64,000 nucleotides of DNA from Plantactinospora alkalitolerans (lineage in GTDB: Bacteria > Actinomycetota > Actinomycetes > Mycobacteriales > Micromonosporaceae). Of this stretch, positions 34,752-61,501 are shown piece by piece (within the stretch, counting starts at the first letter, position 1; each line of letters opens with the position of its first letter). The translations under genes were made by a program, and so were the position numbers. The notes below the pieces were generated by a model. The model was not told the DNA's origin. It did not search any database and worked only from the letters and a program-made list of their open reading frames with translations. Where the stretch lies: positions 1 to 64,000 of the forward strand of contig NZ_JADPUN010000144.1 in NCBI RefSeq assembly GCF_015690345.1, in the 5' to 3' direction.

Positions 34752-34812
34752 TGTCGTTTCCTTCGGTCGAGGGGTGAGGCGTTCCAGGCTTTTCAGGGGT
34801 GGTGGAGCGGTG

Positions 34813-35394
34813 TCAGGAGGTCATGGATCGGAGGTCACGGGTGGAGGTGTCGGGAGCGGCGTCGGGCAGGAGTGCGCGTCGGGCCACCCGGACCAGGGCC
34901 GGGCGGAGTTCCGTGGCGTCGTCCTCGGTGTGGTCGATGGCGATCGCGGCGATCCCGCCGAGCATCACCTCGGCGGCGATCCGGGCCGCCGGATCCGTCG
35001 ACCGCCCGGCGAAGTTGTCGATCAGCCGCGCGGTGACGGGTTGCAGGCTCGCGAAGGCGGGCTGTTCGAGCAGGTGTGGAAGATCGTCGTAGATGAGCGC
35101 GATCTCCCGCCGGTAGGCGAGCACCAGCTCGACGAAGCCCTCGATGGCGGCCTCCTGGGCGGCGGCGGCGTCGAGCCCGTCGATCCTGGTGTCGAGGTCG
35201 ACCAGGTCCCCCGCGGCGGGCGCGACCAGGGCCAGCAGGATGGCTTCCTTGCTGTCGAAGTGGTACAGCAGCGTGGCCTTCGAGCAGCCCACCTCGACCG
35301 CGATGTCGTGCAGGGACGTGCCCTTGAAGCCGACCCGGGCGAACTGCCGGGCCGCGACAGCCAGGATCTCGGCACGGGTTCTGCTGCGGGCCAT
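34813..35394 (-). CDS. TetR-family repressor of the MMPL transporter
   Basis: A 193-residue TetR regulator. The N-terminal helix-turn-helix is [46 protein letters not shown] (residues ~7-52). The rest is an all-helical ligand/dimer domain. It is transcribed ahead of the MMPL gene, and two TetR-type palindromes lie just upstream of its start, so it most likely represses itself and the transporter. The ligand is unknown. Confidence 0.92.
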
Positions 35395-35422
35395 GTGCTC
35401 ACCTCCGCAACCCAGCGTGCCT

Positions 35423-35455
35423 TGACCGATCGGTCAGCAACTAACCGATCGGTCA
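35423..35455. promoter_or_regulatory. Tandem TetR operators
   Basis: TGACCGATCGGTCA (35423-35436) is a perfect 14-bp palindrome. TAACCGATCGGTCA (35442-35455) is the same with one change. Their centres are 19 bp apart. They lie 29 bp upstream of the tetR ATG, a classical autoregulatory layout. Confidence 0.85.
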
Positions 35456-35565
35456 GAATGTGAGCTGGATTACTGAGTACCTGACGGCGTCGGGCCCGAC
35501 CGCTGGTCCGAGGCGGAAGTCTCGTTTCGCGAGCTGACCAAGCAGTGATTCAGATCCAACTGTCA

Positions 35566-35579
35566 ATATCTGTAGATAT
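35566..35579. promoter_or_regulatory. AT-rich inverted repeat upstream of the rhs gene
   Basis: ATATCT-GT-AGATAT lies in an AT-rich patch (about 35550-35605) with a repeated TGATTGG (35584 and 35592) roughly 80-120 bp before the rhs start. In this GC-rich window such a patch stands out; a promoter or silencer-binding site is possible. Confidence 0.45.
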
Positions 35580-35685
35580 CTATTGATTGGCTGATTGGAT
35601 GATCTGCTCTCGGAGGATCGGCCCTACGGTGATCTTGCCTGCCTCACGGTCGAGGCGCACCGATACCACGGCACGGGGGAGTCCG

Positions 35686-38600
35686 ATGGGTAGAGGATTT
35701 GTCGGCCGCGTCAGCGTCTGCCTGGCATTGATCCTGGCCACACAACTGGTGCCGGGGCTGCCCGAACCCTTGGTGGGCGCGCGGCCCGCGGCGGCGAGCG
35801 CAGTGCCCCCGACGCCGCCACCGGCCGCCGTGGATCCGGCGCCGTACCTGTCGGTGGTGGACCGGCCCGGACCCACCGAGGTGGCCCGGTACGACATCTC
35901 GACGGACACGGTGTGGGGCCCACAGGGCTCGCCCTACATCATCCGGTCGATGGTGGAGATCGCCGAGGGGGCCAGTCTGACGCTGCTGCCCGGTACCGTG
36001 GTCAAGCTCGACAAGTCCGGTGTGCTGCAGGCGTACGGTCAGATCCTGTCCCTCGGCACTCCGCGCCAGCGAGTGATCTTCACATCGCTGCGGGACGACA
36101 CGGTGCTCGGCGACACCAACGGCGACGGTGACGCCACCCGGCCCGCCTCCGAGGACTGGAACTACATCGCCGTCGTCGGCGGCGACATCTCGGTGGCGAA
36201 CTACCGGCGACCGGTGAGCTTCTTCGACCACACCGACTTCAAATACGGTGGCCAGGAGGTCACCAGTTGTTCGGCCGCAGCGCTCGAACTCGGCTGGGCC
36301 GGCAGCCGGGCGGTGATCTCCAACTCGACCTTCGTGGCCACGACGGCCGGCGTTCGCTCGAGGGTGGGTGATCGGGGTTTCGCCGGCATCTACAACTCGT
36401 ACTTCGAGTCCGGCAGTTGCGGGATCACGATGAGCCAGAGCAGTGCCGAGATCGTGGGCAACACCTTCGGCGCCGGGCTGACGACCGCCCTCACCGCTGA
36501 TCAACCGAAGAAGTTGCGGTTCTGGTACAACACCGCCGAACAGAAAGTCGGGGTCTACAGCAGATACTCCGGCGCTCCGCCGCCGTCCCGGCCCGACGTG
36601 GACGTACGGTACAACGCCCTGCTGACCGGCTACACCACGTTCCCCTACGGATTCTTCAACCTGACCGACTGGTCCGGCAACTGGTTCGGTCGGGACGCCA
36701 ACGCCGCGCTGCCCACCTGCATGGACCCGGCGCTGGCCGCAGCCGCGAATCCACCGGTGAAGACCACGCCGTCGACGAGTTGTCCCACGGGCCAGGCCGC
36801 CGTGGTGGGTTACCTGGATGGCGTACTACCGGCGCTGTCCGGCTCGCCCCAGGTGCTCCCGACCGCGATCCGGGAGGCTTCCGCACCCCGTCTCGGGCCG
36901 GTCAACCTGCACAGCGGAGCGCTGACCTATCAGACCGAGGACCTGGCCGTGCAGGACGCGGGCAAACAGCTCACCGCGACCCGTACCTACCGGTCGGACC
37001 GGCTTTCCGGCGGTGACGCGGGTAAGGGCTGGACGAGCGCGTACTCGGAGGCGTTGTCGACCGTCGGTGCGCAGACCACGCTGAACCTCCCCGACGGCAC
37101 CGCGCTGGGCTTCGCTACCGATCCCGGGGCCGGATACACCCCCGCCCCCGGTGTGTCGGCCTCGTACGTGACCGGCGCGACGGGCAGCACGGTCACCACG
37201 CCGGAACAGACGAGCTACCGGTTCAACCCGGCCGGTGAACTCACCGGCCTGACCCTCGGTGACCCCGGCCACGAGGTGGACGTTCAGCGGTCCGGCGGTC
37301 AGGTCAGCCGGGTCACCGGGGTGTCGGGACGTCACCTGGCGTACACCCGAAGTGGCGGGCGGCTCGACGCGATCGCCGACCAGACCGGCCGTGGCGTGGC
37401 CCTGTCGTACACCGGGGAACGGCTGACCGGCGCCAGGGGGGTCGACGGGTACACCGAGACCTACGAGTACGACGGCAGCGGCCGACTGACCAAGGTGGTC
37501 ACCCCGGAGGGCCGGGTGAAGCTCGCCGCCGGATACCGCGCGGACGGCCGGGTGGACTGGGTCGAGGATCAGGGAACCGGCCGGACGGCCATCGGCTACG
37601 ACGACGCCAACGGGCGTCGCACCGTCACCCGGGCCGACGGGACCGTGCTCACCCAGACATACGACTGGGCCGGTCGCCTGGTCACAGAACGGGCCGGCAG
37701 CACCGGCGTGCACATGATCTACGACGGCGAGGGGCGCCTGGTATCCCGGATCACCGGCGTGCCGGCGGTGCCGATGAAGGGCTACGGACCGTCGGCACCG
37801 GCCACCCTCTACGACGGCAAGGGCGATCCGGTCATGTCGGTCGACGAGTACGGCGCCGATACCGCGACCACCTTCGACGCCAAGCACCGCCCGTTGCTGA
37901 CCACCCTGTACGACCGGAGCACCATCAGCCGCAGCTATGACGCCGATGGGCGGCTGGACCAGATGACCGACCAGTTCGGAAAGGTGTGGGAGTACGACTT
38001 CAACGGCCGTGGGCAGCCCACCGTGCAGACCGATCCGTTGCGTCGGACCCGGAAACTCGGCTACGAGGCCGACGGCGATCTGGCCTCGGTGACCGACGAG
38101 TCCAATGCGACCACCGTGTTCGGCAACGACACGCTCGGCCGGCGGACGTCGGTCACCGATCCGCTCCAGAAGCGTACGACCCTGGCCTACACGACCTGGG
38201 ACGAGCTGATCGAGACGGAGAAACCGCGGGGCGGCAGGACCACTGTCACCTTCGACCGGGACCGGCACCCGACGTCGGTGACCGATCCCGCCCAGGTCGC
38301 CACCTCTTTCCGATACGACACCAGCGGGCGGCTGGAGACCATCGTCGACGCGGCAGAGAACACGACGGTGCTGGGGTACGACGCGGCGGGTCGGATCAGC
38401 ACGGTGACCGACCCCCGAGAGTTCGTGACGCAGCGGGGCTACACGCCCGAGGGCTGGGTGCGTGACATCACCGACTCCCGGCAGAAGGTCACGAGCTTCA
38501 CCTACGATCCGATGGGTCGGCTGATGCGCAGCACCGACCCGCTGAACCAGGTGACGCAGCTCCAGTACGACCGGTCGAGCAGGGTCACCAAGGAGTGGAC

Positions 38601-41600
38601 CGCGGACGGCGCGATCTGGGCGAGTGGCTACAACGCCATGGGTCGGCAAACCTCGGTGACCACGCCCCGGAAACACACGTGGGCGATGGAGTACGACCTC
38701 GCCGGCAAGCCGACCAAGGTCACCGACCCGTTGGCCGCCACCTCGCTGACCTCGTACGACGACGTCGGTCGGGTGAAGACCACCACCGACCAGGAGAACA
38801 TCGCCACCACCTACACCTACGACGACGCCGCGCGCACCGTGACGGTGACCGACGTCCTCGGCACGGTGGGTGTGCACCGGTCCGACGCCGCCGGCCGGCC
38901 GAGGTCGTACACCGACGGCTCCGGGCTCACCACGAGCTGGGGGTACGACGACGACGGCAACCGCAGCTCGACGACCGACCCGGCGGGCACCAGCCGTACC
39001 GAGTACAACCTGGCGGGTCAGGTCACCGCCGAGGTCGACGCCACCCTCCGGCGCACGGGCAGCACCTACGACGCGGTCGGGCGACTGGACACCGTCACCC
39101 ACCCCGGTGGGGCGGCCGAGTCGTTCGACTACGACCCGGTCGGCAACCTGACCACCCACACGGACCGGACGGGAGCGGTCTGGAGCTGGACCTACCAGGC
39201 GGCGAACCTGATGGACACGGCCACCGACCCGCTCCAGAAGGTCACCCGGTACACCTACGACGACCTCGGGCGGCAGTCGTCGATCACCGACCCCACCGGC
39301 GTGGTCACGAACACCGCGTACGACCCGGTGGGCCGGCCGGCGGTCCGCTGGGACGCCCGTGGCGCCTCCTGGGTGACCCGTTACGACCTCAACGGCGACA
39401 TCAGCGAGGAGGTCGACCCGGCCGGCGTCGAGCGCAACTATGAGTACGACAAGCTCGGCCGGCGCGAGTGGATGGGGTTCGCGAACACGTCGTACTACTA
39501 CGACTACGACAAGACGAGCCGGATGATCAGCGGTGACGTGCCGTACCGGCAGACCTGGGACCACGACGCCCGGGGCCGGGTCACCGAGGTCGGTGACGCG
39601 TACGGCAAGAAGACGACCTACGGCTACGACGGTGCCGGCCGGCAGACCACGGAACGGCTACCCGGTGGGCGTGAAACCACCCGGACCTACGACGCGGCCG
39701 GTCGCCTCGACACCGCGCTCGACGGGCTGCGGAACGCGACCGACTACGACTACGACGCCGCCGGCCGGCTCACCACGCTCACACTGCCCCGGGGCGGGCA
39801 CTTCGACTACACCTACGACGCCGCGGGCCTGCTCGACACCGAGACCGATCCGGCCCGGCAGACCACCAGCTACGACTACGACCAGGCGGGCCGGTGGAAG
39901 GGCACCACGTACCCGTCGGGTCGCGTCGTCACCGCCGAGTACGACCCGGCAGGGCGGCAGAAGTTCGTCAAGGCGGGCGCGGAGACCCGCAGCTTCGGTT
40001 ACGACGACGCCGGTCGGATCGCCTCGGCCGCCACCGCCGGCCACCAGACCACCCTGACCTACGACGACCGGGGCCTGCTCAAGAGCACCACCGACGCGTT
40101 CGGTACCACCGGCTACGACTACGACCTGGCACACCGGCTGGCCACCCGGACGCCACCCAGCGGTGCCGCCACGACGTTCGAGTACCACTCGCTCAGTGGA
40201 CGCATGACGGCGCTGCGCGGACCGATCAGTGCCGACTACGCGTACGACAGGGGTGGCCAGATCGAGAGCATCAGCGGCCGGCTGCCCACCGCGACCACGT
40301 ACGACCGGCGGAAGTACGACGACAACGGCCGGCTCTCCACCGTCGTGACGCCCTTCGACACCTACGGCGTCACCTATACGCCCGACGGTCAGGTCAAGTC
40401 GACGACGGGGCCGACCCCCGGCAGCGGTACGCCGACGACCACCACCTACAGCTACGACGATGCCGGCCGGCTCGACACCGCGGTCGCCGGTCAGGGCAGC
40501 ACGGTGGTGTCCAGCACCGACTACGACTGGGACGCCGACGGCAACCGCACCTCCGTGGAGGTCTCCGGCCAGCCCACGGTCACCGCCTCCTACGACCTGG
40601 CGGACCGGATCACGTCGACCTCCACGGCGGGGGAACACACCTACGACCTGGACGGCCGGCTGAAATCGACCGCCGACGGACAGAGCTACTCGTACGACCC
40701 GTACGGGCAACTGACCGGCGCGACCACCTCGGACGGCACGGTCGCGTACAGCCGGGACGCGTTCGGTCGGGTCGCCGGGCGGACCGTCGGGGGCGTCGAG
40801 CAGTCGTTCTCGTACGAGGCGACCTCGGCCGCGGTCTCGGGCAGCAGGACCGGGTCCGGTCCATCGACCGAGGTGGTCCGGGATCCCTCGGGGGACCTGC
40901 TCGGTCAGCGGACGGTCGGCGGCACCAGCGTGCGGGCCCTGTTCAACCCGCACGGTGACGTGACCCGCTTCGTCGACACCACGAACGGGCGGGTCTCCTG
41001 GTCGGCGGAGTACGACCCGTTCGGAACGACCTTCGGCGTGTCCGGTACGGCACCACCGGTGCCGTTCGGGTTCCAGGCCATGTACAGCGATCCGCTCACC
41101 GGACTCGTCGACATGGCGGCGCGGCACTACGACTCCGGCACCGGACGGTTCACCCAGCCCGACACGGTCATCGGGGACCTGGGCAGTCCGATCAGCCTCA
41201 ACCGTTACCTCTACGCCAATGCTGATCCGCTCAGCATGTTCGACCCGGACGGTCACTGGCCGCGCTGGCTCAACGGACTGGCGAACGCCATCCGGGGCGC
41301 CGTCGACCAGATCGGCGACTCGATCTCCCACACCTGGAAGCGGGTGGAGGGCAGCGCCTCGGTCTCGTCGATGAAACGCTCTCTGGAGCGCTCGGGTCGG
41401 AACCTGGCCGCCGAGATCGCCAGCGGCACCGCCCGATTCTGGGATGACCACCAGGACCGGATCGGCAAGGCCCTTGTCGGGGTCACGGTCGGCGCGGCGA
41501 TCATCGGTGGGTGCACGGCACTCGGGGTGGCGACGGCCGGTATCGGCGGCGCGGTCTGCTTCGGGGCCGCCATCGGCGCCGTGGCCGGCGGTGCGTTCTG

Positions 41601-42348
41601 CGACTCCGACCGCAACGCCCTCGCCTGCGCGGGGACGGGCGCGGCGGCCGGTGGCGTGGCGGGCCTGACCGGTGGTCTGGTCGGGGGAGCCGGTGGCAGC
41701 GCGTTCGCCGTGGGGGCGGTGTCCGGCTTCACCGGTGACGCCACCGAGCAGGTGCTCAGCACCGGAACCATCGACGCGCGGCGGTTGGCCGGCGCCACCT
41801 TCGGCGGAGCGATCCTCGGCAGGATCAGCGGGCGGCTGCTGGCCGGCAGGACCGGTACGGCGACACGTCCCTGGGGTGCGGGTCCGCTGGCCCTGCCGCC
41901 TGGCCCGCTCGCCGGCCGGGGGCGGGTGGCACTACCGGGCGCGTCGAGCGTGGAACGTGCCGCCGGTGAGCGGGCGGTTCCGCTGTTGCGGGTGCGTGGC
42001 ATGGGGGTCGGGCCGAGGTATCCGATGAACATGGGTTCGGTACGGCACATCGCGGCCAAGTACGGCGTCGACATCTCGGGCATCCGTTTCGACATCAACA
42101 AGAGTCTTGCGAACAGGTTCGGAATGACGCGGCCGAACTGCACGGTGCAACTCTGTCGGGATGCCTTCCGCAGTGAGGAGGACCTGGCTCGTACCCTGGC
42201 GCACGAGAAGGTCCACGTCGACGAGTTGCGAGGTGGGCGGCCCTATCCCAAGGATGACGCGGAGGCCGAGCTCTGGGAGGACCGGGCGTACAAATTCGAG
42301 GCCGACTGGTGGGCGCAGCATCCGGTACGGCCGGACGGGGTGGGCTGA
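35686..42348 (+). CDS. Secreted Rhs/YD-repeat protein with zincin-like C-terminal toxin domain
   Basis: A 2,220-residue Rhs protein of the WapA type. In order: a Sec signal peptide (cut likely after A39, ASA-VP), a beta-helix-like region (~80-330), a DUF6531 start (~400-475), dozens of YD repeats (~530-1800) and the conserved core end DPLSMFDPDG (~1846-1856). The C-terminal region that follows is the variable part: a Gly/Ala-rich hydrophobic stretch (~1925-2020) and a final domain with TLAHEKVHVDELR. HEKVH (2173-2177) is an HExxH zinc motif and E2198 or E2205 is a candidate third ligand. It is therefore a likely metallopeptidase-type polymorphic toxin. ATG 35686 has GGGGGAG 5 nt upstream; longer in-frame starts lack a signal peptide at the N-terminus. 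Confidence 0.9.
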   Translation: MGRGFVGRVSVCLALILATQLVPGLPEPLVGARPAAASAVPPTPPPAAVDPAPYLSVVDRPGPTEVARYDISTDTVWGPQGSPYIIRSMVEIAEGASLTLLPGTVVKLDKSGVLQAYGQILSLGTPRQRVIFTSLRDDTVLGDTNGDGDATRPASEDWNYIAVVGGDISVANYRRPVSFFDHTDFKYGGQEVTSCSAAALELGWAGSRAVISNSTFVATTAGVRSRVGDRGFAGIYNSYFESGSCGITMSQSSAEIVGNTFGAGLTTALTADQPKKLRFWYNTAEQKVGVYSRYSGAPPPSRPDVDVRYNALLTGYTTFPYGFFNLTDWSGNWFGRDANAALPTCMDPALAAAANPPVKTTPSTSCPTGQAAVVGYLDGVLPALSGSPQVLPTAIREASAPRLGPVNLHSGALTYQTEDLAVQDAGKQLTATRTYRSDRLSGGDAGKGWTSAYSEALSTVGAQTTLNLPDGTALGFATDPGAGYTPAPGVSASYVTGATGSTVTTPEQTSYRFNPAGELTGLTLGDPGHEVDVQRSGGQVSRVTGVSGRHLAYTRSGGRLDAIADQTGRGVALSYTGERLTGARGVDGYTETYEYDGSGRLTKVVTPEGRVKLAAGYRADGRVDWVEDQGTGRTAIGYDDANGRRTVTRADGTVLTQTYDWAGRLVTERAGSTGVHMIYDGEGRLVSRITGVPAVPMKGYGPSAPATLYDGKGDPVMSVDEYGADTATTFDAKHRPLLTTLYDRSTISRSYDADGRLDQMTDQFGKVWEYDFNGRGQPTVQTDPLRRTRKLGYEADGDLASVTDESNATTVFGNDTLGRRTSVTDPLQKRTTLAYTTWDELIETEKPRGGRTTVTFDRDRHPTSVTDPAQVATSFRYDTSGRLETIVDAAENTTVLGYDAAGRISTVTDPREFVTQRGYTPEGWVRDITDSRQKVTSFTYDPMGRLMRSTDPLNQVTQLQYDRSSRVTKEWTADGAIWASGYNAMGRQTSVTTPRKHTWAMEYDLAGKPTKVTDPLAATSLTSYDDVGRVKTTTDQENIATTYTYDDAARTVTVTDVLGTVGVHRSDAAGRPRSYTDGSGLTTSWGYDDDGNRSSTTDPAGTSRTEYNLAGQVTAEVDATLRRTGSTYDAVGRLDTVTHPGGAAESFDYDPVGNLTTHTDRTGAVWSWTYQAANLMDTATDPLQKVTRYTYDDLGRQSSITDPTGVVTNTAYDPVGRPAVRWDARGASWVTRYDLNGDISEEVDPAGVERNYEYDKLGRREWMGFANTSYYYDYDKTSRMISGDVPYRQTWDHDARGRVTEVGDAYGKKTTYGYDGAGRQTTERLPGGRETTRTYDAAGRLDTALDGLRNATDYDYDAAGRLTTLTLPRGGHFDYTYDAAGLLDTETDPARQTTSYDYDQAGRWKGTTYPSGRVVTAEYDPAGRQKFVKAGAETRSFGYDDAGRIASAATAGHQTTLTYDDRGLLKSTTDAFGTTGYDYDLAHRLATRTPPSGAATTFEYHSLSGRMTALRGPISADYAYDRGGQIESISGRLPTATTYDRRKYDDNGRLSTVVTPFDTYGVTYTPDGQVKSTTGPTPGSGTPTTTTYSYDDAGRLDTAVAGQGSTVVSSTDYDWDADGNRTSVEVSGQPTVTASYDLADRITSTSTAGEHTYDLDGRLKSTADGQSYSYDPYGQLTGATTSDGTVAYSRDAFGRVAGRTVGGVEQSFSYEATSAAVSGSRTGSGPSTEVVRDPSGDLLGQRTVGGTSVRALFNPHGDVTRFVDTTNGRVSWSAEYDPFGTTFGVSGTAPPVPFGFQAMYSDPLTGLVDMAARHYDSGTGRFTQPDTVIGDLGSPISLNRYLYANADPLSMFDPDGHWPRWLNGLANAIRGAVDQIGDSISHTWKRVEGSASVSSMKRSLERSGRNLAAEIASGTARFWDDHQDRIGKALVGVTVGAAIIGGCTALGVATAGIGGAVCFGAAIGAVAGGAFCDSDRNALACAGTGAAAGGVAGLTGGLVGGAGGSAFAVGAVSGFTGDATEQVLSTGTIDARRLAGATFGGAILGRISGRLLAGRTGTATRPWGAGPLALPPGPLAGRGRVALPGASSVERAAGERAVPLLRVRGMGVGPRYPMNMGSVRHIAAKYGVDISGIRFDINKSLANRFGMTRPNCTVQLCRDAFRSEEDLARTLAHEKVHVDELRGGRPYPKDDAEAELWEDRAYKFEADWWAQHPVRPDGVG

Positions 42349-42363
42349 TGGAGGAACGGATCG

Positions 42364-42648
42364 ATGGCTAGCTGGGACGAGTGGAGCGATCGGTACGAGG
42401 TGGCGTTCGTCGCGGTGCCGGGCGACCCGCACCAGCCGTGCCCGGAGTGTGGCCACGACGCCCTACGGCTGGTCTTCACGGGCGATCTCGAAACGGCGGT
42501 CGGTTATGCCTCCTTCTGGTGCGACCACTGTCTCAACGGCATCTCGATTTCGCGGGTCCCCATTCCCCCGGGCGCCGTCGTGCGTTCGATCCACGACGCG
42601 CCGGAGGACCGACGGCCTGTCATACCCAACTTCCGACTGGTCATCTGA
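42364..42648 (+). CDS. Zinc-ribbon small protein, candidate immunity partner of the Rhs toxin
   Basis: A 94-residue cytoplasmic protein 15 bp after the rhs stop, with a GGAGGA ribosome site. Two CxxC pairs (C26/C29 in PCPECGH and C53/C56 in WCDHC) form a zinc-ribbon-like arrangement. No immunity family is recognised by name. The position immediately after the toxin domain is where Rhs immunity genes normally sit, so the immunity role is inferred from context only. Confidence 0.65.
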   Translation: MASWDEWSDRYEVAFVAVPGDPHQPCPECGHDALRLVFTGDLETAVGYASFWCDHCLNGISISRVPIPPGAVVRSIHDAPEDRRPVIPNFRLVI

Positions 42649-42782
42649 ACCGCCGTCGTGATCCGTTGCGCGGATCCCGGCCGCTGACACGGCCCTGCCC
42701 CGGCGTCGATCGGATCTCGACGGCCGGGTCCGGGGGACGATCGCCGTGGCGGGAAGCGGCCGGAACGGAGGAGGATGGCACC

Positions 42783-43286
42783 ATGCGCTGGACCGTGCTC
42801 GAATCCCCGATCGACGAGCTCTCCGTCGGGGTCGACGACGTCGGAGTCTGTGGCGTGCGTTTCGGACCGGTGGAGGTGGCGGTTCCGGCCACGGCCCTGG
42901 TCGAGCCGTCCGGTCCCGACACCGCCGGGCTGGCGGCGGCGGTCGCGCAGCTTCGGGCGTTCTTCGCGGGGGAGCTGACCGAATTCACCGTTCCGCTGCA
43001 CGTGCGGCGGGGCTCGGAGTTCGAGCGCGCGGTCTGGGCCGAGATGTCGAAGATCCCGTACGGCGAGACCCGCACCTACGGCGAGGTGGCGGCGGCGGTC
43101 GGCGACCCGGGGGCGGCCCGCGCGGTCGGGGTGGCCTGCAACCGGAACCCCATCCCGGTGATCGTGCCCTGCCACCGGATCGTCGGGGCCGGCGGCAAGC
43201 TGGTCGGCTTCGGCGGCGGCCTGTCGCGCAAGCGCCACCTGCTGGAGCTGGAGGCCGGCGTCGCCTTCCAGCGCGCCTGGACCTGA
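42783..43286 (+). CDS. ogt: Methylated-DNA--[protein]-cysteine S-methyltransferase
   Basis: A 167-residue O6-alkylguanine repair protein. The active cysteine is C130 in IPVIVPCHRIVG; AYGEVA-like helix residues (TYGEVAAAVG) and ARAVGVACNRNP precede it. It removes alkyl groups from O6-guanine in a single suicide transfer. GGAGGA lies just upstream of the ATG. It is convergent with the metal-ATPase gene, ends 20 bp apart. It has no evident link to the rhs pair. Confidence 0.95.
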   Translation: MRWTVLESPIDELSVGVDDVGVCGVRFGPVEVAVPATALVEPSGPDTAGLAAAVAQLRAFFAGELTEFTVPLHVRRGSEFERAVWAEMSKIPYGETRTYGEVAAAVGDPGAARAVGVACNRNPIPVIVPCHRIVGAGGKLVGFGGGLSRKRHLLELEAGVAFQRAWT

Positions 43287-43306
43287 TCCTCGACGGGGCC
43301 GGCGGG

Positions 43307-45382: not shown

Positions 45383-45404
45383 CGTCGATCACCCCTCGAA
45401 GGCA

Positions 45405-45472
45405 AATATACCCCTGGGGGGTACCTTGGCAAGGGGTACGTCGGTAAGGGGTACGTCGACAAGGGGTTGTCG
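45405..45472 (-). promoter_or_regulatory. Metal-ATPase promoter with CsoR-like operator and 15-bp direct repeats
   Basis: On the minus strand TTGCCA (45432-45427) and TATATT (45410-45405) form a -35/-10 pair with a 16-nt spacer. The spacer contains most of ATACCCCTGGGGGGTAC (45408-45424), a pseudo-palindromic G-tract like known CsoR copper-repressor sites. Upstream lie three direct repeats of AAGGGGTACGTCG type at 45431, 45446 and 45461, spaced 15 bp. Confidence 0.65.
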
Positions 45473-45490
45473 TAACTCCAGAGACAGGAG

Positions 45491-45520
45491 CGGGGCCGGA
45501 CCGTCTTCGGTCCGGCCCCG
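45491..45520 (-). terminator. Terminator of the padR-ino1 operon
   Basis: CGGGGCCGGACCG (45491-45503), a 4-nt TCTT loop and its perfect complement (45508-45520) form a 13-bp GC-rich stem 18 bp after the ino1 stop. Confidence 0.85.
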
Positions 45521-45537
45521 TCTGCCCTACCTCACAC

Positions 45538-46617: not shown

Positions 46618-46640
46618 CGCGTTTGCCTCCTTTGTGTTCA

Positions 46641-47309: not shown

Positions 47310-47377
47310 TGAGCACCCCTCTCCGCGTCTCCGTCAGGACCGGTGTGGCTTCCCTGTCAGGAGCCAGTCGCCGACCC

Positions 47378-47398
47378 GATGTATCGGGCCGATACATC
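47378..47398. promoter_or_regulatory. PadR operator palindrome
   Basis: GATGTATCGG and CCGATACATC flank a single central G, giving 10-bp perfect arms. ATGT…ACAT half-sites are typical for PadR regulators. The site lies between padR and the divergent DUF5318 gene. Confidence 0.75.
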
Positions 47399-47507
47399 GC
47401 ACCGTAGACCCTCGCGCCCGGCGTGGCAAACCGTCGCAGGGCACGGATTCCACTACAGTCAGTGACGGTGGTCGCCTCGTCCGGCCGGACCGCGTACTCT
47501 TCTGCGC

Positions 47508-47981: not shown

Positions 47982-48043
47982 TCGTGACTCGTCTTCCCGA
48001 TTCGGGGATCTTCCGACATTGGCGGGGCGAGTATCACTCAGCA

Positions 48044-48061
48044 AACCGGATAAGTCCGGTT
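48044..48061 (+). terminator. Small hairpin after the DUF5318 gene
   Basis: AACCGGA, TAAG, TCCGGTT forms a 7-bp stem followed by ATTTCCC, 63 bp after the stop. It is a modest terminator candidate between this gene and ponA. The mirror copy is at 49126-49143. Confidence 0.45.
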
Positions 48062-50546: not shown

Positions 50547-50569
50547 TGAACACAAAGGAGGCAAACGCG

Positions 50570-54538: not shown

Positions 54539-54823
54539 TCAGATGACCAGTCGGAAGTTGGGTATGACAGGCCGTCGGTCCTCCGGCGCGTCGTGGATCG
54601 AACGCACGACGGCGCCCGGGGGAATGGGGACCCGCGAAATCGAGATGCCGTTGAGACAGTGGTCGCACCAGAAGGAGGCATAACCGACCGCCGTTTCGAG
54701 ATCGCCCGTGAAGACCAGCCGTAGGGCGTCGTGGCCACACTCCGGGCACGGCTGGTGCGGGTCGCCCGGCACCGCGACGAACGCCACCTCGTACCGATCG
54801 CTCCACTCGTCCCAGCTAGCCAT
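54539..54823 (-). CDS. Zinc-ribbon candidate immunity protein, mirror copy
   Basis: Identical 94-residue protein to that at 42364-42648, with C26/C29 and C53/C56. It again follows the rhs stop by 15 bp. Confidence 0.6.
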   Translation of the reverse strand: MASWDEWSDRYEVAFVAVPGDPHQPCPECGHDALRLVFTGDLETAVGYASFWCDHCLNGISISRVPIPPGAVVRSIHDAPEDRRPVIPNFRLVI

Positions 54824-54838
54824 CGATCCGTTCCTCCA

Positions 54839-57800
54839 TCAGCCCACCCCGTCCGGCCGTACCGGATGCTGCGCCCACCAGTCGGCCTCGAATTTGTACG
54901 CCCGGTCCTCCCAGAGCTCGGCCTCCGCGTCATCCTTGGGATAGGGCCGCCCACCTCGCAACTCGTCGACGTGGACCTTCTCGTGCGCCAGGGTACGAGC
55001 CAGGTCCTCCTCACTGCGGAAGGCATCCCGACAGAGTTGCACCGTGCAGTTCGGCCGCGTCATTCCGAACCTGTTCGCAAGACTCTTGTTGATGTCGAAA
55101 CGGATGCCCGAGATGTCGACGCCGTACTTGGCCGCGATGTGCCGTACCGAACCCATGTTCATCGGATACCTCGGCCCGACCCCCATGCCACGCACCCGCA
55201 ACAGCGGAACCGCCCGCTCACCGGCGGCACGTTCCACGCTCGACGCGCCCGGTAGTGCCACCCGCCCCCGGCCGGCGAGCGGGCCAGGCGGCAGGGCCAG
55301 CGGACCCGCACCCCAGGGACGTGTCGCCGTACCGGTCCTGCCGGCCAGCAGCCGCCCGCTGATCCTGCCGAGGATCGCTCCGCCGAAGGTGGCGCCGGCC
55401 AACCGCCGCGCGTCGATGGTTCCGGTGCTGAGCACCTGCTCGGTGGCGTCACCGGTGAAGCCGGACACCGCCCCCACGGCGAACGCGCTGCCACCGGCTC
55501 CCCCGACCAGACCACCGGTCAGGCCCGCCACGCCACCGGCCGCCGCGCCCGTCCCCGCGCAGGCGAGGGCGTTGCGGTCGGAGTCGCAGAACGCACCGCC
55601 GGCCACGGCGCCGATGGCGGCCCCGAAGCAGACCGCGCCGCCGATACCGGCCGTCGCCACCCCGAGTGCCGTGCACCCACCGATGATCGCCGCGCCGACC
55701 GTGACCCCGACAAGGGCCTTGCCGATCCGGTCCTGGTGGTCATCCCAGAATCGGGCGGTGCCGCTGGCGATCTCGGCGGCCAGGTTCCGACCCGAGCGCT
55801 CCAGAGAGCGTTTCATCGACGAGACCGAGGCGCTGCCCTCCACCCGCTTCCAGGTGTGGGAGATCGAGTCGCCGATCTGGTCGACGGCGCCCCGGATGGC
55901 GTTCGCCAGTCCGTTGAGCCAGCGCGGCCAGTGACCGTCCGGGTCGAACATGCTGAGCGGATCAGCATTGGCGTAGAGGTAACGGTTGAGGCTGATCGGA
56001 CTGCCCAGGTCCCCGATGACCGTGTCGGGCTGGGTGAACCGTCCGGTGCCGGAGTCGTAGTGCCGCGCCGCCATGTCGACGAGTCCGGTGAGCGGATCGC
56101 TGTACATGGCCTGGAACCCGAACGGCACCGGTGGTGCCGTACCGGACACGCCGAAGGTCGTTCCGAACGGGTCGTACTCCGCCGACCAGGAGACCCGCCC
56201 GTTCGTGGTGTCGACGAAGCGGGTCACGTCACCGTGCGGGTTGAACAGGGCCCGCACGCTGGTGCCGCCGACCGTCCGCTGACCGAGCAGGTCCCCCGAG
56301 GGATCCCGGACCACCTCGGTCGATGGACCGGACCCGGTCCTGCTGCCCGAGACCGCGGCCGAGGTCGCCTCGTACGAGAACGACTGCTCGACGCCCCCGA
56401 CGGTCCGCCCGGCGACCCGACCGAACGCGTCCCGGCTGTACGCGACCGTGCCGTCCGAGGTGGTCGCGCCGGTCAGTTGCCCGTACGGGTCGTACGAGTA
56501 GCTCTGTCCGTCGGCGGTCGATTTCAGCCGGCCGTCCAGGTCGTAGGTGTGTTCCCCCGCCGTGGAGGTCGACGTGATCCGGTCCGCCAGGTCGTAGGAG
56601 GCGGTGACCGTGGGCTGGCCGGAGACCTCCACGGAGGTGCGGTTGCCGTCGGCGTCCCAGTCGTAGTCGGTGCTGGACACCACCGTGCTGCCCTGACCGG
56701 CGACCGCGGTGTCGAGCCGGCCGGCATCGTCGTAGCTGTAGGTGGTGGTCGTCGGCGTACCGCTGCCGGGGGTCGGCCCCGTCGTCGACTTGACCTGACC
56801 GTCGGGCGTATAGGTGACGCCGTAGGTGTCGAAGGGCGTCACGACGGTGGAGAGCCGGCCGTTGTCGTCGTACTTCCGCCGGTCGTACGTGGTCGCGGTG
56901 GGCAGCCGGCCGCTGATGCTCTCGATCTGGCCACCCCTGTCGTACGCGTAGTCGGCACTGATCGGTCCGCGCAGCGCCGTCATGCGTCCACTGAGCGAGT
57001 GGTACTCGAACGTCGTGGCGGCACCGCTGGGTGGCGTCCGGGTGGCCAGCCGGTGTGCCAGGTCGTAGTCGTAGCCGGTGGTACCGAACGCGTCGGTGGT
57101 GCTCTTGAGCAGGCCCCGGTCGTCGTAGGTCAGGGTGGTCTGGTGGCCGGCGGTGGCGGCCGAGGCGATCCGACCGGCGTCGTCGTAACCGAAGCTGCGG
57201 GTCTCCGCGCCCGCCTTGACGAACTTCTGCCGCCCTGCCGGGTCGTACTCGGCGGTGACGACGCGACCCGACGGGTACGTGGTGCCCTTCCACCGGCCCG
57301 CCTGGTCGTAGTCGTAGCTGGTGGTCTGCCGGGCCGGATCGGTCTCGGTGTCGAGCAGGCCCGCGGCGTCGTAGGTGTAGTCGAAGTGCCCGCCCCGGGG
57401 CAGTGTGAGCGTGGTGAGCCGGCCGGCGGCGTCGTAGTCGTAGTCGGTCGCGTTCCGCAGCCCGTCGAGCGCGGTGTCGAGGCGACCGGCCGCGTCGTAG
57501 GTCCGGGTGGTTTCACGCCCACCGGGTAGCCGTTCCGTGGTCTGCCGGCCGGCACCGTCGTAGCCGTAGGTCGTCTTCTTGCCGTACGCGTCACCGACCT
57601 CGGTGACCCGGCCCCGGGCGTCGTGGTCCCAGGTCTGCCGGTACGGCACGTCACCGCTGATCATCCGGCTCGTCTTGTCGTAGTCGTAGTAGTACGACGT
57701 GTTCGCGAACCCCATCCACTCGCGCCGGCCGAGCTTGTCGTACTCATAGTTGCGCTCGACGCCGGCCGGGTCGACCTCCTCGCTGATGTCGCCGTTGAGG

Positions 57801-60800
57801 TCGTAACGGGTCACCCAGGAGGCGCCACGGGCGTCCCAGCGGACCGCCGGCCGGCCCACCGGGTCGTACGCGGTGTTCGTGACCACGCCGGTGGGGTCGG
57901 TGATCGACGACTGCCGCCCGAGGTCGTCGTAGGTGTACCGGGTGACCTTCTGGAGCGGGTCGGTGGCCGTGTCCATCAGGTTCGCCGCCTGGTAGGTCCA
58001 GCTCCAGACCGCTCCCGTCCGGTCCGTGTGGGTGGTCAGGTTGCCGACCGGGTCGTAGTCGAACGACTCGGCCGCCCCACCGGGGTGGGTGACGGTGTCC
58101 AGTCGCCCGACCGCGTCGTAGGTGCTGCCCGTGCGCCGGAGGGTGGCGTCGACCTCGGCGGTGACCTGACCCGCCAGGTTGTACTCGGTACGGCTGGTGC
58201 CCGCCGGGTCGGTCGTCGAGCTGCGGTTGCCGTCGTCGTCGTACCCCCAGCTCGTGGTGAGCCCGGAGCCGTCGGTGTACGACCTCGGCCGGCCGGCGGC
58301 GTCGGACCGGTGCACACCCACCGTGCCGAGGACGTCGGTCACCGTCACGGTGCGCGCGGCGTCGTCGTAGGTGTAGGTGGTGGCGATGTTCTCCTGGTCG
58401 GTGGTGGTCTTCACCCGACCGACGTCGTCGTACGAGGTCAGCGAGGTGGCGGCCAACGGGTCGGTGACCTTGGTCGGCTTGCCGGCGAGGTCGTACTCCA
58501 TCGCCCACGTGTGTTTCCGGGGCGTGGTCACCGAGGTTTGCCGACCCATGGCGTTGTAGCCACTCGCCCAGATCGCGCCGTCCGCGGTCCACTCCTTGGT
58601 GACCCTGCTCGACCGGTCGTACTGGAGCTGCGTCACCTGGTTCAGCGGGTCGGTGCTGCGCATCAGCCGACCCATCGGATCGTAGGTGAAGCTCGTGACC
58701 TTCTGCCGGGAGTCGGTGATGTCACGCACCCAGCCCTCGGGCGTGTAGCCCCGCTGCGTCACGAACTCTCGGGGGTCGGTCACCGTGCTGATCCGACCCG
58801 CCGCGTCGTACCCCAGCACCGTCGTGTTCTCTGCCGCGTCGACGATGGTCTCCAGCCGCCCGCTGGTGTCGTATCGGAAAGAGGTGGCGACCTGGGCGGG
58901 ATCGGTCACCGACGTCGGGTGCCGGTCCCGGTCGAAGGTGACAGTGGTCCTGCCGCCCCGCGGTTTCTCCGTCTCGATCAGCTCGTCCCAGGTCGTGTAG
59001 GCCAGGGTCGTACGCTTCTGGAGCGGATCGGTGACCGACGTCCGCCGGCCGAGCGTGTCGTTGCCGAACACGGTGGTCGCATTGGACTCGTCGGTCACCG
59101 AGGCCAGATCGCCGTCGGCCTCGTAGCCGAGTTTCCGGGTCCGACGCAACGGATCGGTCTGCACGGTGGGCTGCCCACGGCCGTTGAAGTCGTACTCCCA
59201 CACCTTTCCGAACTGGTCGGTCATCTGGTCCAGCCGCCCATCGGCGTCATAGCTGCGGCTGATGGTGCTCCGGTCGTACAGGGTGGTCAGCAACGGGCGG
59301 TGCTTGGCGTCGAAGGTGGTCGCGGTATCGGCGCCGTACTCGTCGACCGACATGACCGGATCGCCCTTGCCGTCGTAGAGGGTGGCCGGTGCCGACGGTC
59401 CGTAGCCCTTCATCGGCACCGCCGGCACGCCGGTGATCCGGGATACCAGGCGCCCCTCGCCGTCGTAGATCATGTGCACGCCGGTGCTGCCGGCCCGTTC
59501 TGTGACCAGGCGACCGGCCCAGTCGTATGTCTGGGTGAGCACGGTCCCGTCGGCCCGGGTGACGGTGCGACGCCCGTTGGCGTCGTCGTAGCCGATGGCC
59601 GTCCGGCCGGTTCCCTGATCCTCGACCCAGTCCACCCGGCCGTCCGCGCGGTATCCGGCGGCGAGCTTCACCCGGCCCTCCGGGGTGACCACCTTGGTCA
59701 GTCGGCCGCTGCCGTCGTACTCGTAGGTCTCGGTGTACCCGTCGACCCCCCTGGCGCCGGTCAGCCGTTCCCCGGTGTACGACAGGGCCACGCCACGGCC
59801 GGTCTGGTCGGCGATCGCGTCGAGCCGCCCGCCACTTCGGGTGTACGCCAGGTGACGTCCCGACACCCCGGTGACCCGGCTGACCTGACCGCCGGACCGC
59901 TGAACGTCCACCTCGTGGCCGGGGTCACCGAGGGTCAGGCCGGTGAGTTCACCGGCCGGGTTGAACCGGTAGCTCGTCTGTTCCGGCGTGGTGACCGTGC
60001 TGCCCGTCGCGCCGGTCACGTACGAGGCCGACACACCGGGGGCGGGGGTGTATCCGGCCCCGGGATCGGTAGCGAAGCCCAGCGCGGTGCCGTCGGGGAG
60101 GTTCAGCGTGGTCTGCGCACCGACGGTCGACAACGCCTCCGAGTACGCGCTCGTCCAGCCCTTACCCGCGTCACCGCCGGAAAGCCGGTCCGACCGGTAG
60201 GTACGGGTCGCGGTGAGCTGTTTGCCCGCGTCCTGCACGGCCAGGTCCTCGGTCTGATAGGTCAGCGCTCCGCTGTGCAGGTTGACCGGCCCGAGACGGG
60301 GTGCGGAAGCCTCCCGGATCGCGGTCGGGAGCACCTGGGGCGAGCCGGACAGCGCCGGTAGTACGCCATCCAGGTAACCCACCACGGCGGCCTGGCCCGT
60401 GGGACAACTCGTCGACGGCGTGGTCTTCACCGGTGGATTCGCGGCTGCGGCCAGCGCCGGGTCCATGCAGGTGGGCAGCGCGGCGTTGGCGTCCCGACCG
60501 AACCAGTTGCCGGACCAGTCGGTCAGGTTGAAGAATCCGTAGGGGAACGTGGTGTAGCCGGTCAGCAGGGCGTTGTACCGTACGTCCACGTCGGGCCGGG
60601 ACGGCGGCGGAGCGCCGGAGTATCTGCTGTAGACCCCGACTTTCTGTTCGGCGGTGTTGTACCAGAACCGCAACTTCTTCGGTTGATCAGCGGTGAGGGC
60701 GGTCGTCAGCCCGGCGCCGAAGGTGTTGCCCACGATCTCGGCACTGCTCTGGCTCATCGTGATCCCGCAACTGCCGGACTCGAAGTACGAGTTGTAGATG

Positions 60801-61501
60801 CCGGCGAAACCCCGATCACCCACCCTCGAGCGAACGCCGGCCGTCGTGGCCACGAAGGTCGAGTTGGAGATCACCGCCCGGCTGCCGGCCCAGCCGAGTT
60901 CGAGCGCTGCGGCCGAACAACTGGTGACCTCCTGGCCACCGTATTTGAAGTCGGTGTGGTCGAAGAAGCTCACCGGTCGCCGGTAGTTCGCCACCGAGAT
61001 GTCGCCGCCGACGACGGCGATGTAGTTCCAGTCCTCGGAGGCGGGCCGGGTGGCGTCACCGTCGCCGTTGGTGTCGCCGAGCACCGTGTCGTCCCGCAGC
61101 GATGTGAAGATCACTCGCTGGCGCGGAGTGCCGAGGGACAGGATCTGACCGTACGCCTGCAGCACACCGGACTTGTCGAGCTTGACCACGGTACCGGGCA
61201 GCAGCGTCAGACTGGCCCCCTCGGCGATCTCCACCATCGACCGGATGATGTAGGGCGAGCCCTGTGGGCCCCACACCGTGTCCGTCGAGATGTCGTACCG
61301 GGCCACCTCGGTGGGTCCGGGCCGGTCCACCACCGACAGGTACGGCGCCGGATCCACGGCGGCCGGTGGCGGCGTCGGGGGCACTGCGCTCGCCGCCGCG
61401 GGCCGCGCGCCCACCAAGGGTTCGGGCAGCCCCGGCACCAGTTGTGTGGCCAGGATCAATGCCAGGCAGACGCTGACGCGGCCGACAAATCCTCTACCCA
61501 T
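54839..61501 (-). CDS. Secreted Rhs/YD-repeat toxin-like protein, mirror copy
   Basis: Identical 2,220-residue protein to that at 35686-42348, including the HEKVH motif. Perfect identity through a highly repetitive 6.7-kb gene, with no repeat-number change, argues that the two arms come from one template or are very recent. Confidence 0.85.
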   Translation of the reverse strand: MGRGFVGRVSVCLALILATQLVPGLPEPLVGARPAAASAVPPTPPPAAVDPAPYLSVVDRPGPTEVARYDISTDTVWGPQGSPYIIRSMVEIAEGASLTLLPGTVVKLDKSGVLQAYGQILSLGTPRQRVIFTSLRDDTVLGDTNGDGDATRPASEDWNYIAVVGGDISVANYRRPVSFFDHTDFKYGGQEVTSCSAAALELGWAGSRAVISNSTFVATTAGVRSRVGDRGFAGIYNSYFESGSCGITMSQSSAEIVGNTFGAGLTTALTADQPKKLRFWYNTAEQKVGVYSRYSGAPPPSRPDVDVRYNALLTGYTTFPYGFFNLTDWSGNWFGRDANAALPTCMDPALAAAANPPVKTTPSTSCPTGQAAVVGYLDGVLPALSGSPQVLPTAIREASAPRLGPVNLHSGALTYQTEDLAVQDAGKQLTATRTYRSDRLSGGDAGKGWTSAYSEALSTVGAQTTLNLPDGTALGFATDPGAGYTPAPGVSASYVTGATGSTVTTPEQTSYRFNPAGELTGLTLGDPGHEVDVQRSGGQVSRVTGVSGRHLAYTRSGGRLDAIADQTGRGVALSYTGERLTGARGVDGYTETYEYDGSGRLTKVVTPEGRVKLAAGYRADGRVDWVEDQGTGRTAIGYDDANGRRTVTRADGTVLTQTYDWAGRLVTERAGSTGVHMIYDGEGRLVSRITGVPAVPMKGYGPSAPATLYDGKGDPVMSVDEYGADTATTFDAKHRPLLTTLYDRSTISRSYDADGRLDQMTDQFGKVWEYDFNGRGQPTVQTDPLRRTRKLGYEADGDLASVTDESNATTVFGNDTLGRRTSVTDPLQKRTTLAYTTWDELIETEKPRGGRTTVTFDRDRHPTSVTDPAQVATSFRYDTSGRLETIVDAAENTTVLGYDAAGRISTVTDPREFVTQRGYTPEGWVRDITDSRQKVTSFTYDPMGRLMRSTDPLNQVTQLQYDRSSRVTKEWTADGAIWASGYNAMGRQTSVTTPRKHTWAMEYDLAGKPTKVTDPLAATSLTSYDDVGRVKTTTDQENIATTYTYDDAARTVTVTDVLGTVGVHRSDAAGRPRSYTDGSGLTTSWGYDDDGNRSSTTDPAGTSRTEYNLAGQVTAEVDATLRRTGSTYDAVGRLDTVTHPGGAAESFDYDPVGNLTTHTDRTGAVWSWTYQAANLMDTATDPLQKVTRYTYDDLGRQSSITDPTGVVTNTAYDPVGRPAVRWDARGASWVTRYDLNGDISEEVDPAGVERNYEYDKLGRREWMGFANTSYYYDYDKTSRMISGDVPYRQTWDHDARGRVTEVGDAYGKKTTYGYDGAGRQTTERLPGGRETTRTYDAAGRLDTALDGLRNATDYDYDAAGRLTTLTLPRGGHFDYTYDAAGLLDTETDPARQTTSYDYDQAGRWKGTTYPSGRVVTAEYDPAGRQKFVKAGAETRSFGYDDAGRIASAATAGHQTTLTYDDRGLLKSTTDAFGTTGYDYDLAHRLATRTPPSGAATTFEYHSLSGRMTALRGPISADYAYDRGGQIESISGRLPTATTYDRRKYDDNGRLSTVVTPFDTYGVTYTPDGQVKSTTGPTPGSGTPTTTTYSYDDAGRLDTAVAGQGSTVVSSTDYDWDADGNRTSVEVSGQPTVTASYDLADRITSTSTAGEHTYDLDGRLKSTADGQSYSYDPYGQLTGATTSDGTVAYSRDAFGRVAGRTVGGVEQSFSYEATSAAVSGSRTGSGPSTEVVRDPSGDLLGQRTVGGTSVRALFNPHGDVTRFVDTTNGRVSWSAEYDPFGTTFGVSGTAPPVPFGFQAMYSDPLTGLVDMAARHYDSGTGRFTQPDTVIGDLGSPISLNRYLYANADPLSMFDPDGHWPRWLNGLANAIRGAVDQIGDSISHTWKRVEGSASVSSMKRSLERSGRNLAAEIASGTARFWDDHQDRIGKALVGVTVGAAIIGGCTALGVATAGIGGAVCFGAAIGAVAGGAFCDSDRNALACAGTGAAAGGVAGLTGGLVGGAGGSAFAVGAVSGFTGDATEQVLSTGTIDARRLAGATFGGAILGRISGRLLAGRTGTATRPWGAGPLALPPGPLAGRGRVALPGASSVERAAGERAVPLLRVRGMGVGPRYPMNMGSVRHIAAKYGVDISGIRFDINKSLANRFGMTRPNCTVQLCRDAFRSEEDLARTLAHEKVHVDELRGGRPYPKDDAEAELWEDRAYKFEADWWAQHPVRPDGVG

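What the first reader, a model, noticed from the sequence alone, without database searches (positions are those of the whole stretch)
35686..42648. Rhs toxin with HExxH zincin-like C-terminus and an adjacent zinc-ribbon candidate immunity gene
The Rhs core ends at DPLSMFDPDG (about residue 1856). The variable end has a Gly-rich hydrophobic stretch and a domain with HEKVH at 2173-2177 and downstream glutamates. A 94-residue protein with two CxxC pairs follows 15 bp later. HExxH in a Rhs tail suggests a metallopeptidase effector; the neighbour is where an immunity protein is expected but matches no named family known to me.
Basis: partly seen in the sequence, partly recalled or inferred. Interest (0 to 1): 0.6.

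Follow-up and report, generated by a model that had tools for sequence, protein, structure and literature searches.

The report
Rhs zincin toxin with zinc-ribbon immunity
A giant secreted bacterial protein ends in a small metal-dependent protein-cutting domain that is followed by a matching gene that most likely protects the producer from it, a toxin and antidote pair of a known general type whose two parts belong to no named family we could find.

Summary
The Rhs protein (35686-42348, 2220 aa, a Micromonosporaceae genome) ends in a ~115-residue domain modelled with good confidence (pLDDT 89.7, pTM 0.85) as a compact zincin. H2173, E2174, H2177 and E2198 are invariant in 38 of 38 aligned tails. 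The 94-aa neighbour (42364-42648) is a small zinc-ribbon protein. In a scan of one genome per species, 37 of 37 related tails (31 of them new to the query) have its homologue directly downstream, whether the carrier is an Rhs protein, a WXG100-type (T7SS) protein or a giant protein. Toxin and partner divergence correlate (r 0.84). Conversely, a related Rhs protein keeps the same linker but ends in another toxin. This is a real, mobile toxin-immunity cassette, most likely a cytosol-acting peptidase and its inhibitor. Neither protein reaches a Pfam or NCBIfam cut-off. Sister zincin subfamilies have different partners; one partner is an EF-Tu domain II look-alike (profile E 6.8e-6), which hints at, but does not prove, a translation target. 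The second copy in the window belongs to a contig-wide palindrome, probably an assembly artefact.

The parts
35686..42348 (+). Rhs polymorphic toxin gene, 2220 aa (in-frame TTG start also at 35587)
   Evidence: Pfam RHS_repeat E 4e-111, TEN_YD-shell, DUF6531; TIGR03696 Rhs core end 1776-1857
35686..35802 (+). Probable N-terminal signal peptide (hydrophobic run within residues 1-39)
   Evidence: read directly from the sequence; no signal-peptide predictor was run
41254..41970 (+). Linker / pre-toxin region (residues 1857-2095) with Gly-rich transmembrane-like segments
   Evidence: shared at 37% identity with another Rhs protein that carries a different tail
41995..42345 (+). C-terminal zincin toxin domain (residues 2104-2220)
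   Evidence: alignments A3/A6; model pLDDT 89.7, pTM 0.85; fold matches
42202..42216 (+). HEKVH motif, residues 2173-2177 (predicted zinc ligands H2173, H2177; general base E2174)
   Evidence: invariant in 38 of 38 aligned tails
42277..42279 (+). E2198, predicted third zinc ligand, 21 residues after H2177
   Evidence: invariant in 38 of 38; on the following helix of the model
42364..42648 (+). 94-aa zinc-ribbon protein, candidate immunity protein
   Evidence: adjacent homologue in 37 of 37 scanned loci; model pLDDT 91.9; zinc-ribbon matches Z up to 3.0
54539..61501 (-). Mirror copy of the toxin and immunity genes within the inverted repeat (probably an assembly artefact)

Best explanation
The locus encodes a polymorphic toxin and its immunity protein. 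The Rhs protein is exported, its YD-repeat shell carries the C-terminal domain, and the Gly-rich hydrophobic linker probably helps the tail enter a neighbouring cell. The tail is a minimal zincin peptidase (ligands H2173, H2177, E2198; base E2174) that cuts one or more cytosolic proteins of the target cell. The 94-aa zinc-ribbon protein made from the next gene stays in the producer's cytosol, binds the tail and blocks it. Shown by computation: the zincin fold and motif, the conserved pairing, the exchange of tail and partner between carriers. Inferred: secretion, entry, proteolysis, cytosolic site of action, direct inhibition. The substrate is unknown.
For: Fold and active site. Conserved pair: the genome-contig scan gave 37 loci and all 37 have a homologue of the 94-aa protein on the same strand, its match starting -10 to +121 nt from the tail's stop; 6 of the 37 tails equal query rows, 31 are new. 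Carriers differ: RHS repeats (window, L052, L061, L066), WXG100_2 (L042, L057, the G420 giant ORF), T7SS_signal (L051), so the partner goes with the tail, not with the carrier. The window's tail sits in a 13-row group (support 95/93) whose other 12 rows are carried by WXG100-like proteins; at least 3 carrier changes on the tree. Toxin and partner distances correlate, r 0.84, 0 of 5000 permutations as high. The same linker with another tail, resembling Gln_amidase, and another downstream gene in G015. Partner genes without a detected tail in 8 of the 19 partner-bearing genomes among 397 searched. The window's partner has no strongly hydrophobic stretch (maximum 19-residue mean 0.83), which points to the cytosol.
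Against: No toxicity, protease activity, zinc content or binding has been measured. Foldseek E-values to solved zincins are modest (best 2.3e-3) and VIA Z values are below 7, a range that the tool says may mean only a common arrangement. The scan query (A3) was built only from tails that have the partner, so 37 of 37 holds for this subfamily; 6 of the 37 were query rows. Similar zincin domains lie inside giant ORFs, away from the C-terminus and with no zinc-ribbon partner in the loci held (L023, L024, L026, L027, L029-L033, L037-L040), so there the fold may do something else, such as processing. All four Cys are kept in only 25 of 38 partners, so zinc is not essential to all of them. Export machinery was not looked for. 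One partner of 38 (L058) has a hydrophobic maximum of 1.67, so a cytosolic place is not equally clear for all.
Confidence: 0.75

Rival explanations
1. The zincin is a processing peptidase: it cuts its own carrier (or other Rhs/ESX proteins) after export, and the zinc-ribbon protein is a chaperone or propeptide-like inhibitor that keeps it inactive until then.
For: Related zincin domains occur inside giant ORFs of up to 22,621 codons, up to five copies in one frame (G144), without a zinc-ribbon gene in the loci held. Zhang et al. 2012 describe releasing metallopeptidases in polymorphic toxins (passages of PMC3482391).
Against: In the 37 scanned loci the domain is at or near the C-terminus (0-11 residues left in 36, 76 in L062), and in the window it ends the protein. 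In the passages read, releasing peptidases precede the toxin, and C-terminal versions are taken for toxins. Partner genes persist without a detected tail, which suits immunity better than a chaperone.
Confidence: 0.12
2. The 94-aa protein is not an inhibitor but the toxin's substrate-like decoy or a second effector co-delivered with the tail.
For: A sister zincin subfamily is paired with a protein that resembles domain II of EF-Tu (A9 profile, best E 6.8e-6; 55 of the 60 listed chains are EF-Tu or EF-1A), which could be a target mimic. The window's partner resembles zinc ribbons of transcription factors only weakly (Z 3.0 or less).
Against: A decoy would also act as immunity, so the two are hard to separate by sequence. 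The only matches to the partner in its own genome are the gene and its mirror copy. Co-secretion was not tested. None of 19 single members of the EF-Tu-like set hit the Pfam EF-Tu domain at E 0.1.
Confidence: 0.1
3. The tail is a degenerate zincin with no catalytic role (binding domain only).
For: No activity data; low sequence similarity to known peptidases.
Against: Both His, the catalytic Glu and the third ligand are invariant in 38 of 38 and HExxH is kept in nearly all of the more distant copies aligned; the exception seen there is one of the two internal copies in L041.
Confidence: 0.03

Closest known systems
Tox-MPTase1-5 and other zincin toxins of polymorphic toxin systems (Zhang et al. 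2012, PMC3482391; passages read)
   Same: HExxH zincin domains as tails of Rhs and T7SS carriers; Tox-MPTase1 and Tox-MPTase5 are listed from Actinobacteria
   Different: The window's tail hit none of the Tox-MPTase Pfam models at E 0.1; of 38 tails 4 hit Tox-MPTase2, 1 Tox-MPTase3 and 1 Tox-MPTase5 weakly. The passages give no immunity protein for Tox-MPTase1-5; here a conserved partner is found.
VgrG2b C-terminal metallopeptidase effector and PA0261 immunity (PMC6899460; abstract and section list read)
   Same: A zinc-metallopeptidase antibacterial effector with a cognate immunity protein; its structure 6h56 aligns with the model at Z 5.2, rmsd 3.4 A, 88 residues
   Different: T6SS VgrG carrier and toxicity in the periplasm; here an Rhs or WXG100 carrier and a partner with no apparent export signal
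Minigluzincins (selecase, jannalysin, abylysin), the SprT-type DPC-repair protease 6mdx (type recalled) and IrrE/PprI
   Same: Best structural matches: Foldseek rank 1 selecase 4qhi E 2.3e-3; 6mdx Z 6.8, rmsd 3.7 A, 100 aligned; IrrE 3dte Z 6.6, rmsd 2.6 A, 81 aligned (rows within 1 Z are tied)
   Different: Stand-alone peptidases or regulators, not toxin tails; 12-22% identity in the aligned part
PVC/eCIS metallopeptidase (Pfam eCIS_core PF13699)
   Same: HExxH and a following Glu; 4 of 38 tails hit the model weakly (best E 2.3e-4)
   Different: The window's tail does not hit it and has Glu, not Gln, three residues after the second His (some relatives, e.g. L051 and L053, have Gln); the domain is C-terminal, not N-terminal
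Lit protease (E. coli), which cleaves EF-Tu (one passage of PMC9712102)
   Same: A protease that cuts EF-Tu; relevant only to the sister subfamily with the EF-Tu-like partner. That Lit is an HExxH enzyme is recalled, not checked here.
   Different: Phage-exclusion system triggered by a capsid peptide; no sequence link tested

Membership tests
[quoted passage not shown]
   Rhs models; same linker with another tail in G015; same tail on Rhs, WXG100 and T7SS_signal carriers
Polymorphic toxin system | Immunity gene directly downstream | tested here: met
   partner gene in 37 of 37 loci; that it confers immunity was not tested
Polymorphic toxin system | Toxicity of the tail, neutralised by the partner | not testable with these tools
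   needs expression experiments
Zincin (gluzincin type) metallopeptidase | HExxH plus downstream Glu ligand | tested here: met
   H2173, E2174, H2177, E2198 invariant in 38 of 38
Zincin (gluzincin type) metallopeptidase | Zincin fold: sheet, active-site helix, Glu helix | tested here: met
   model and matches to solved zincins, modest in score
Zincin (gluzincin type) metallopeptidase | Zinc binding and proteolysis | not testable with these tools
   needs biochemistry
Tox-MPTase1-5 (Pfam) | Match to the curated Pfam model | tested here: not met
   window tail: only Peptidase_M76 E 0.0037, SprT-like 0.011 and E3_binding 0.017, all under their cut-offs
eCIS/PVC metallopeptidase | HExxHxxQ...E signature (as given in PMC3482391) | tested here: not met
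   the window has Glu at the Gln position; no model hit for the window
Zinc ribbon | Two CxxC knuckles on a small beta-sheet | tested here: met
   window protein: CxxC 26-29 and 53-56, three main strands; structural matches only Z 3.0 or less; 25 of 38 relatives keep all four Cys
Known zinc-ribbon families (Pfam, NCBIfam) | Match above the curated cut-off | tested here: not met
   best hits for the window protein: Pfam Zn_ribbon_8 E 0.035, NCBIfam HVO_2142 E 2e-4, 21.2 bits against a cut-off of 90
EF-Tu domain II (partner of the sister subfamily only) | Sequence profile match over the whole domain | tested here: met
   A9 positions 9-85 of 87, E 6.8e-6 against PDB sequences
EF-Tu domain II (partner of the sister subfamily only) | Match to a Pfam model of that domain | tested here: not met
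   none of 19 members hit it at E 0.1

The most novel reading that the evidence does not exclude
This zincin clade uses target look-alikes as immunity proteins. One subfamily, present also in the window's own genome (C84), is paired with a single-domain copy of EF-Tu domain II and would attack EF-Tu or another translation GTPase; the window's subfamily, paired with a zinc ribbon, would attack a zinc-ribbon protein of the transcription or translation machinery, with the partner acting as a decoy.
Probability: 0.15. Interest if true: 0.8.

Novelty: new member of a known kind. Interest (0 to 1): 0.5.

Why it matters
It gives a well-delimited toxin-immunity pair, found in many actinomycete genera and moved between Rhs and WXG100/T7SS carriers, whose enzyme class is clear but whose substrate is unknown. 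The Tox-MPTase1-5 families were listed without immunity partners in the survey passages read here; a conserved partner makes neutralisation, specificity and substrate directly testable. The change of partner from a zinc ribbon to an EF-Tu domain II look-alike between sister toxins offers a concrete, cheap hypothesis about what such peptidases cut.

Tried and rejected
Scans that led nowhere: PADLOC gave no hit for tail or partner at E 1; PHROGs gave only unnamed families at E 0.0083 or worse for the tail and 0.022 or worse for the partner; viral contigs gave 30 candidate stretches, none confirmed; the plasmid collection gave no match; the phage collection was not searched. Profile searches of PDB sequences with tail or partner gave only chance-level hits, best E 0.27 and 0.43. 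Foldseek of the partner gave nothing below E 1. Wss1, MATCAP, BepA and M32 carboxypeptidases also appear in the VIA list, tied with others, so no single closest zincin is claimed.

Considered and rejected: that two copies of the pair exist in the genome. The inverted copy is exact within the window, and outside it 32 of 33,186 mirrored positions differ; the centre of symmetry is the middle of the 97,187-base contig. A palindromic contig in a 441-contig assembly is better explained as an assembly artefact; reads were not at hand. That zinc-ribbon and EF-Tu-like partners are one family: profile comparison gives no relation. That the partner of the third subfamily (L128-L135) is EF-Tu-like too: it looks so by eye, but neither PDB sequences nor profile comparison support it, so it is left open.

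Rows dropped before counts: duplicates L001-L004, L010, L013 and L036; L078 from the tree; L107 and L127 from alignment A9; L136 (internal domain) from the partner count. The query alignment A3 and the genome contigs set share 6 tails besides the window, so counts from the two sources are not added together. In the tree the labels of L055 and L076 (Rhs) rest on length and YD-like counts, and that of L062 (T7SS) on its contig having the same length as G420's, not on Pfam.

Literature: eight searches listed nothing whose title or abstract start describes this tail, a zinc-ribbon immunity protein for a zincin toxin, or an EF-Tu-like immunity protein; this covers only the open library held, those terms and the rows listed. 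Seen: passages of PMC3482391, PMC9712102 and PMC12419801, abstract and section list of PMC6899460, search listings for the rest.

Full report
What is there. The Rhs gene lies at 35686-42348 (+), 2220 aa, with an alternative in-frame TTG at 35587. Pfam finds 33 stretches of RHS repeat (E 4e-111), the teneurin YD-shell and DUF6531; the Rhs-associated core model ends at residue 1857. Residues 1-39 look like a signal peptide by eye. After the core comes a Gly-rich region with two transmembrane-like segments (1930-1966), then the tail. HEKVH is at 2173-2177 and is the only HExxH in the protein; shuffling gives one in 38 of 5000 cases. The 94-aa ORF begins 15 nt after the stop, behind GGAGG.

Place. 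The genome is from the same family as Actinoplanes philippinensis: genome G035, listed as same family, has a 789,403-base contig with a tail of this type, and the A. philippinensis record L065 has the same length and the same tail. That family is Micromonosporaceae (recalled for Actinoplanes; Planosporangium, which holds the tail nearest to the window's, is placed there). The contig is 97,187 bases long and mirrors itself: within the window the arms 33187-48593 and 48594-64000 are 100% complementary with nothing between, and outside it 33,154 of 33,186 mirrored positions agree. I treat the second copy as an assembly artefact.

The tail is a zincin. Thirty-seven relatives from the genome-contig scan plus the window were aligned (A6). 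H2173, E2174, H2177, E2198, E2205, R2169, T2170, A2201, W2208 and W2209 are invariant in 38 of 38; two further relatives from the genome search, L025 and L028, have Asp at E2205 but keep the other four active-site residues. AlphaFold2 on A6 gives pLDDT 89.7 and pTM 0.85: a helix, three strands, the HExxH helix (model 67-85) and a second long helix (94-114) with the two Glu. Foldseek ranks selecase, the DPC-repair protease 6mdx, jannalysin and abylysin first, with IrrE-type PprI further down, none below E 0.001. In the VIA second look the 50 listed rows are almost entirely metallopeptidases or complexes with one: 6mdx Z 6.8 (rmsd 3.7, 100 aligned), IrrE 3dte Z 6.6 (2.6, 81), VgrG2b effector 6h56 Z 5.2 (3.4, 88); Z below 8 is middling by the tool's own note. 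Among viral predicted structures the best match is unnamed (E 3.9e-4) and many of the named ones are IrrE- or SprT-like. Sequence models give only hints: of 38 members 15 hit Peptidase_M76, 11 MPTase-PolyVal, 10 SprT-like, 4 eCIS_core and 4 Tox-MPTase2 at E 0.1 or better; for the window M76 reaches 17.5 bits against a cut-off of 25.2. I conclude that it is a zincin that no Pfam model covers at its cut-off.

The neighbour is its partner. In all 37 scanned loci a homologue of the 94-aa protein lies on the same strand, its match starting -10 to +121 nt from the tail's stop. Two limits: the scan query was built from tails that have this partner, and 6 of the 37 tails equal query rows, so 31 are new. 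The carriers differ. RHS repeats were found in L052, L061 and L066, WXG100_2 in L042 and L057, a T7SS signal in L051, nothing telling in L078, and WXG100_2 starts the 6235-codon ORF of G420. By similarity to the L042 carrier, 23 of 37 loci are WXG100-like. On the tree of 37 tails (L078 left out) the window's tail belongs to a 13-row group (95/93) whose other 12 members have WXG100-like carriers, and carrier type changes at least three times; six rows had no carrier label and were not counted. Pairwise distances of tails and partners correlate at 0.84 (0 of 5000 permutations); shared descent of the hosts may add to this. Conversely, the window's linker recurs at 37% identity in an Rhs protein of G015, where it is followed by a tail resembling the glutamine-deamidase papain toxin (E 0.0011, under the cut-off) and a different small gene without a Pfam hit. 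So the tail and its partner move as a cassette.

Partner genes without a tail. In 397 genomes of the order, 19 have the partner; 11 of these have the tail, an order draw of the same size and handles, and 8 do not. In the loci of these 8 no tail was found at E 1, except a 30-codon piece in L089 at E 0.017, perhaps a remnant. In several the gene stands among other small ORFs of immunity-gene size; those neighbours were not family-tested (one search failed). In a spread of 296 genomes of the phylum 3 had a match, one of them partial, so the tail is rare across the phylum.

Structure of the partner. AlphaFold2 gives pLDDT 91.9: an N-terminal helix and three main strands. Solved structures match only the ribbon (model residues about 20-72): ELOF1, NrdR and RPA12-type zinc ribbons at Z 3.0 or less. 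All four Cys are kept in 25 of 38; the rest, mostly Actinoplanes and Paractinoplanes rows, have lost the second Cys and some also the fourth. W7, C26, W52, C53, G59, P68 and P88 are invariant, so the ribbon seems to be a scaffold that tolerates loss of zinc ligands. The window's partner has no strongly hydrophobic stretch, so I place immunity, and hence the toxin's action, in the cytosol.

Sister subfamilies. A second subfamily of tails (HESIH/HESVH/HERVH), also present in the window's genome on contig C84, has a different partner in 21 of 21 loci examined (L107-L127; four of them loci that made the model, one with the partner in two pieces). A profile of 19 of these partners matches domain II of EF-Tu over positions 9-85 of 87 with E 6.8e-6, and 55 of the 60 listed chains are EF-Tu or EF-1A; the first five-member profile already did so at 5.5e-4, with a designed protein among the hits. 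Against this, no single member hits the Pfam EF-Tu domain at E 0.1 and no structure was predicted. A third subfamily (HEHTH) has yet another partner in 8 of 8 loci (L128-L135), of unknown kin. In giant ORFs related zincins lie internally with no zinc-ribbon partner in the loci held; one of those loci, L026, has a stray weak hit to the EF-Tu-like model (E 2e-3). A partner that changes with the toxin subfamily is what an immunity role predicts. An EF-Tu-like immunity protein would be either a reused barrel or a decoy of the target; one passage records that Lit protease cleaves EF-Tu (PMC9712102).

Verdict. It is a real toxin-immunity cassette with a zincin tail and a zinc-ribbon partner; for the window's proteins no Pfam or NCBIfam model reaches its cut-off, PADLOC gives nothing and PHROGs only weak unnamed families. 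The kind of system is known; the members are new as far as these searches show. The substrate is the open question, and the partner of the sister subfamily gives one testable lead.

Noticed in passing
33187-64000: The window's right half is an exact inverted repeat with no spacer (arms 33187-48593 and 48594-64000); its centre is the middle of the 97,187-base contig, which mirrors itself throughout apart from 32 of 33,186 positions compared outside the window. Probably an assembly artefact.
   Followed up: yes
L107-L127 (second subfamily; L107 is the window's own genome, contig C84): A sister zincin tail is paired with a ~90-aa protein resembling EF-Tu domain II, in 21 of 21 loci examined.
   Followed up: partly
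L128-L135: A third zincin subfamily (HEHTH) is followed, 8 of 8, by another conserved ~86-aa protein with no database match; by eye it also resembles a translation-factor barrel.
   Followed up: partly
L032, L039 (G144), L037 (G329), L030, L038 (G171), L025, L040 (G365): Open frames of 9,599 to 22,621 codons carry two to five zincin copies each; the G365 frame (14,714 codons) ends in the window's type of tail followed by the zinc-ribbon gene.
   Followed up: partly
L087, L088, L089, L095, L097: Zinc-ribbon partner genes without a detected tail (L089 keeps a possible 30-codon remnant), among other small ORFs; L095/L099 looks frame-broken. Possible immunity arrays.
   Followed up: partly
L101 (G015): An Rhs protein with the window's linker but a tail resembling Gln_amidase and a different small gene downstream.
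   Followed up: partly
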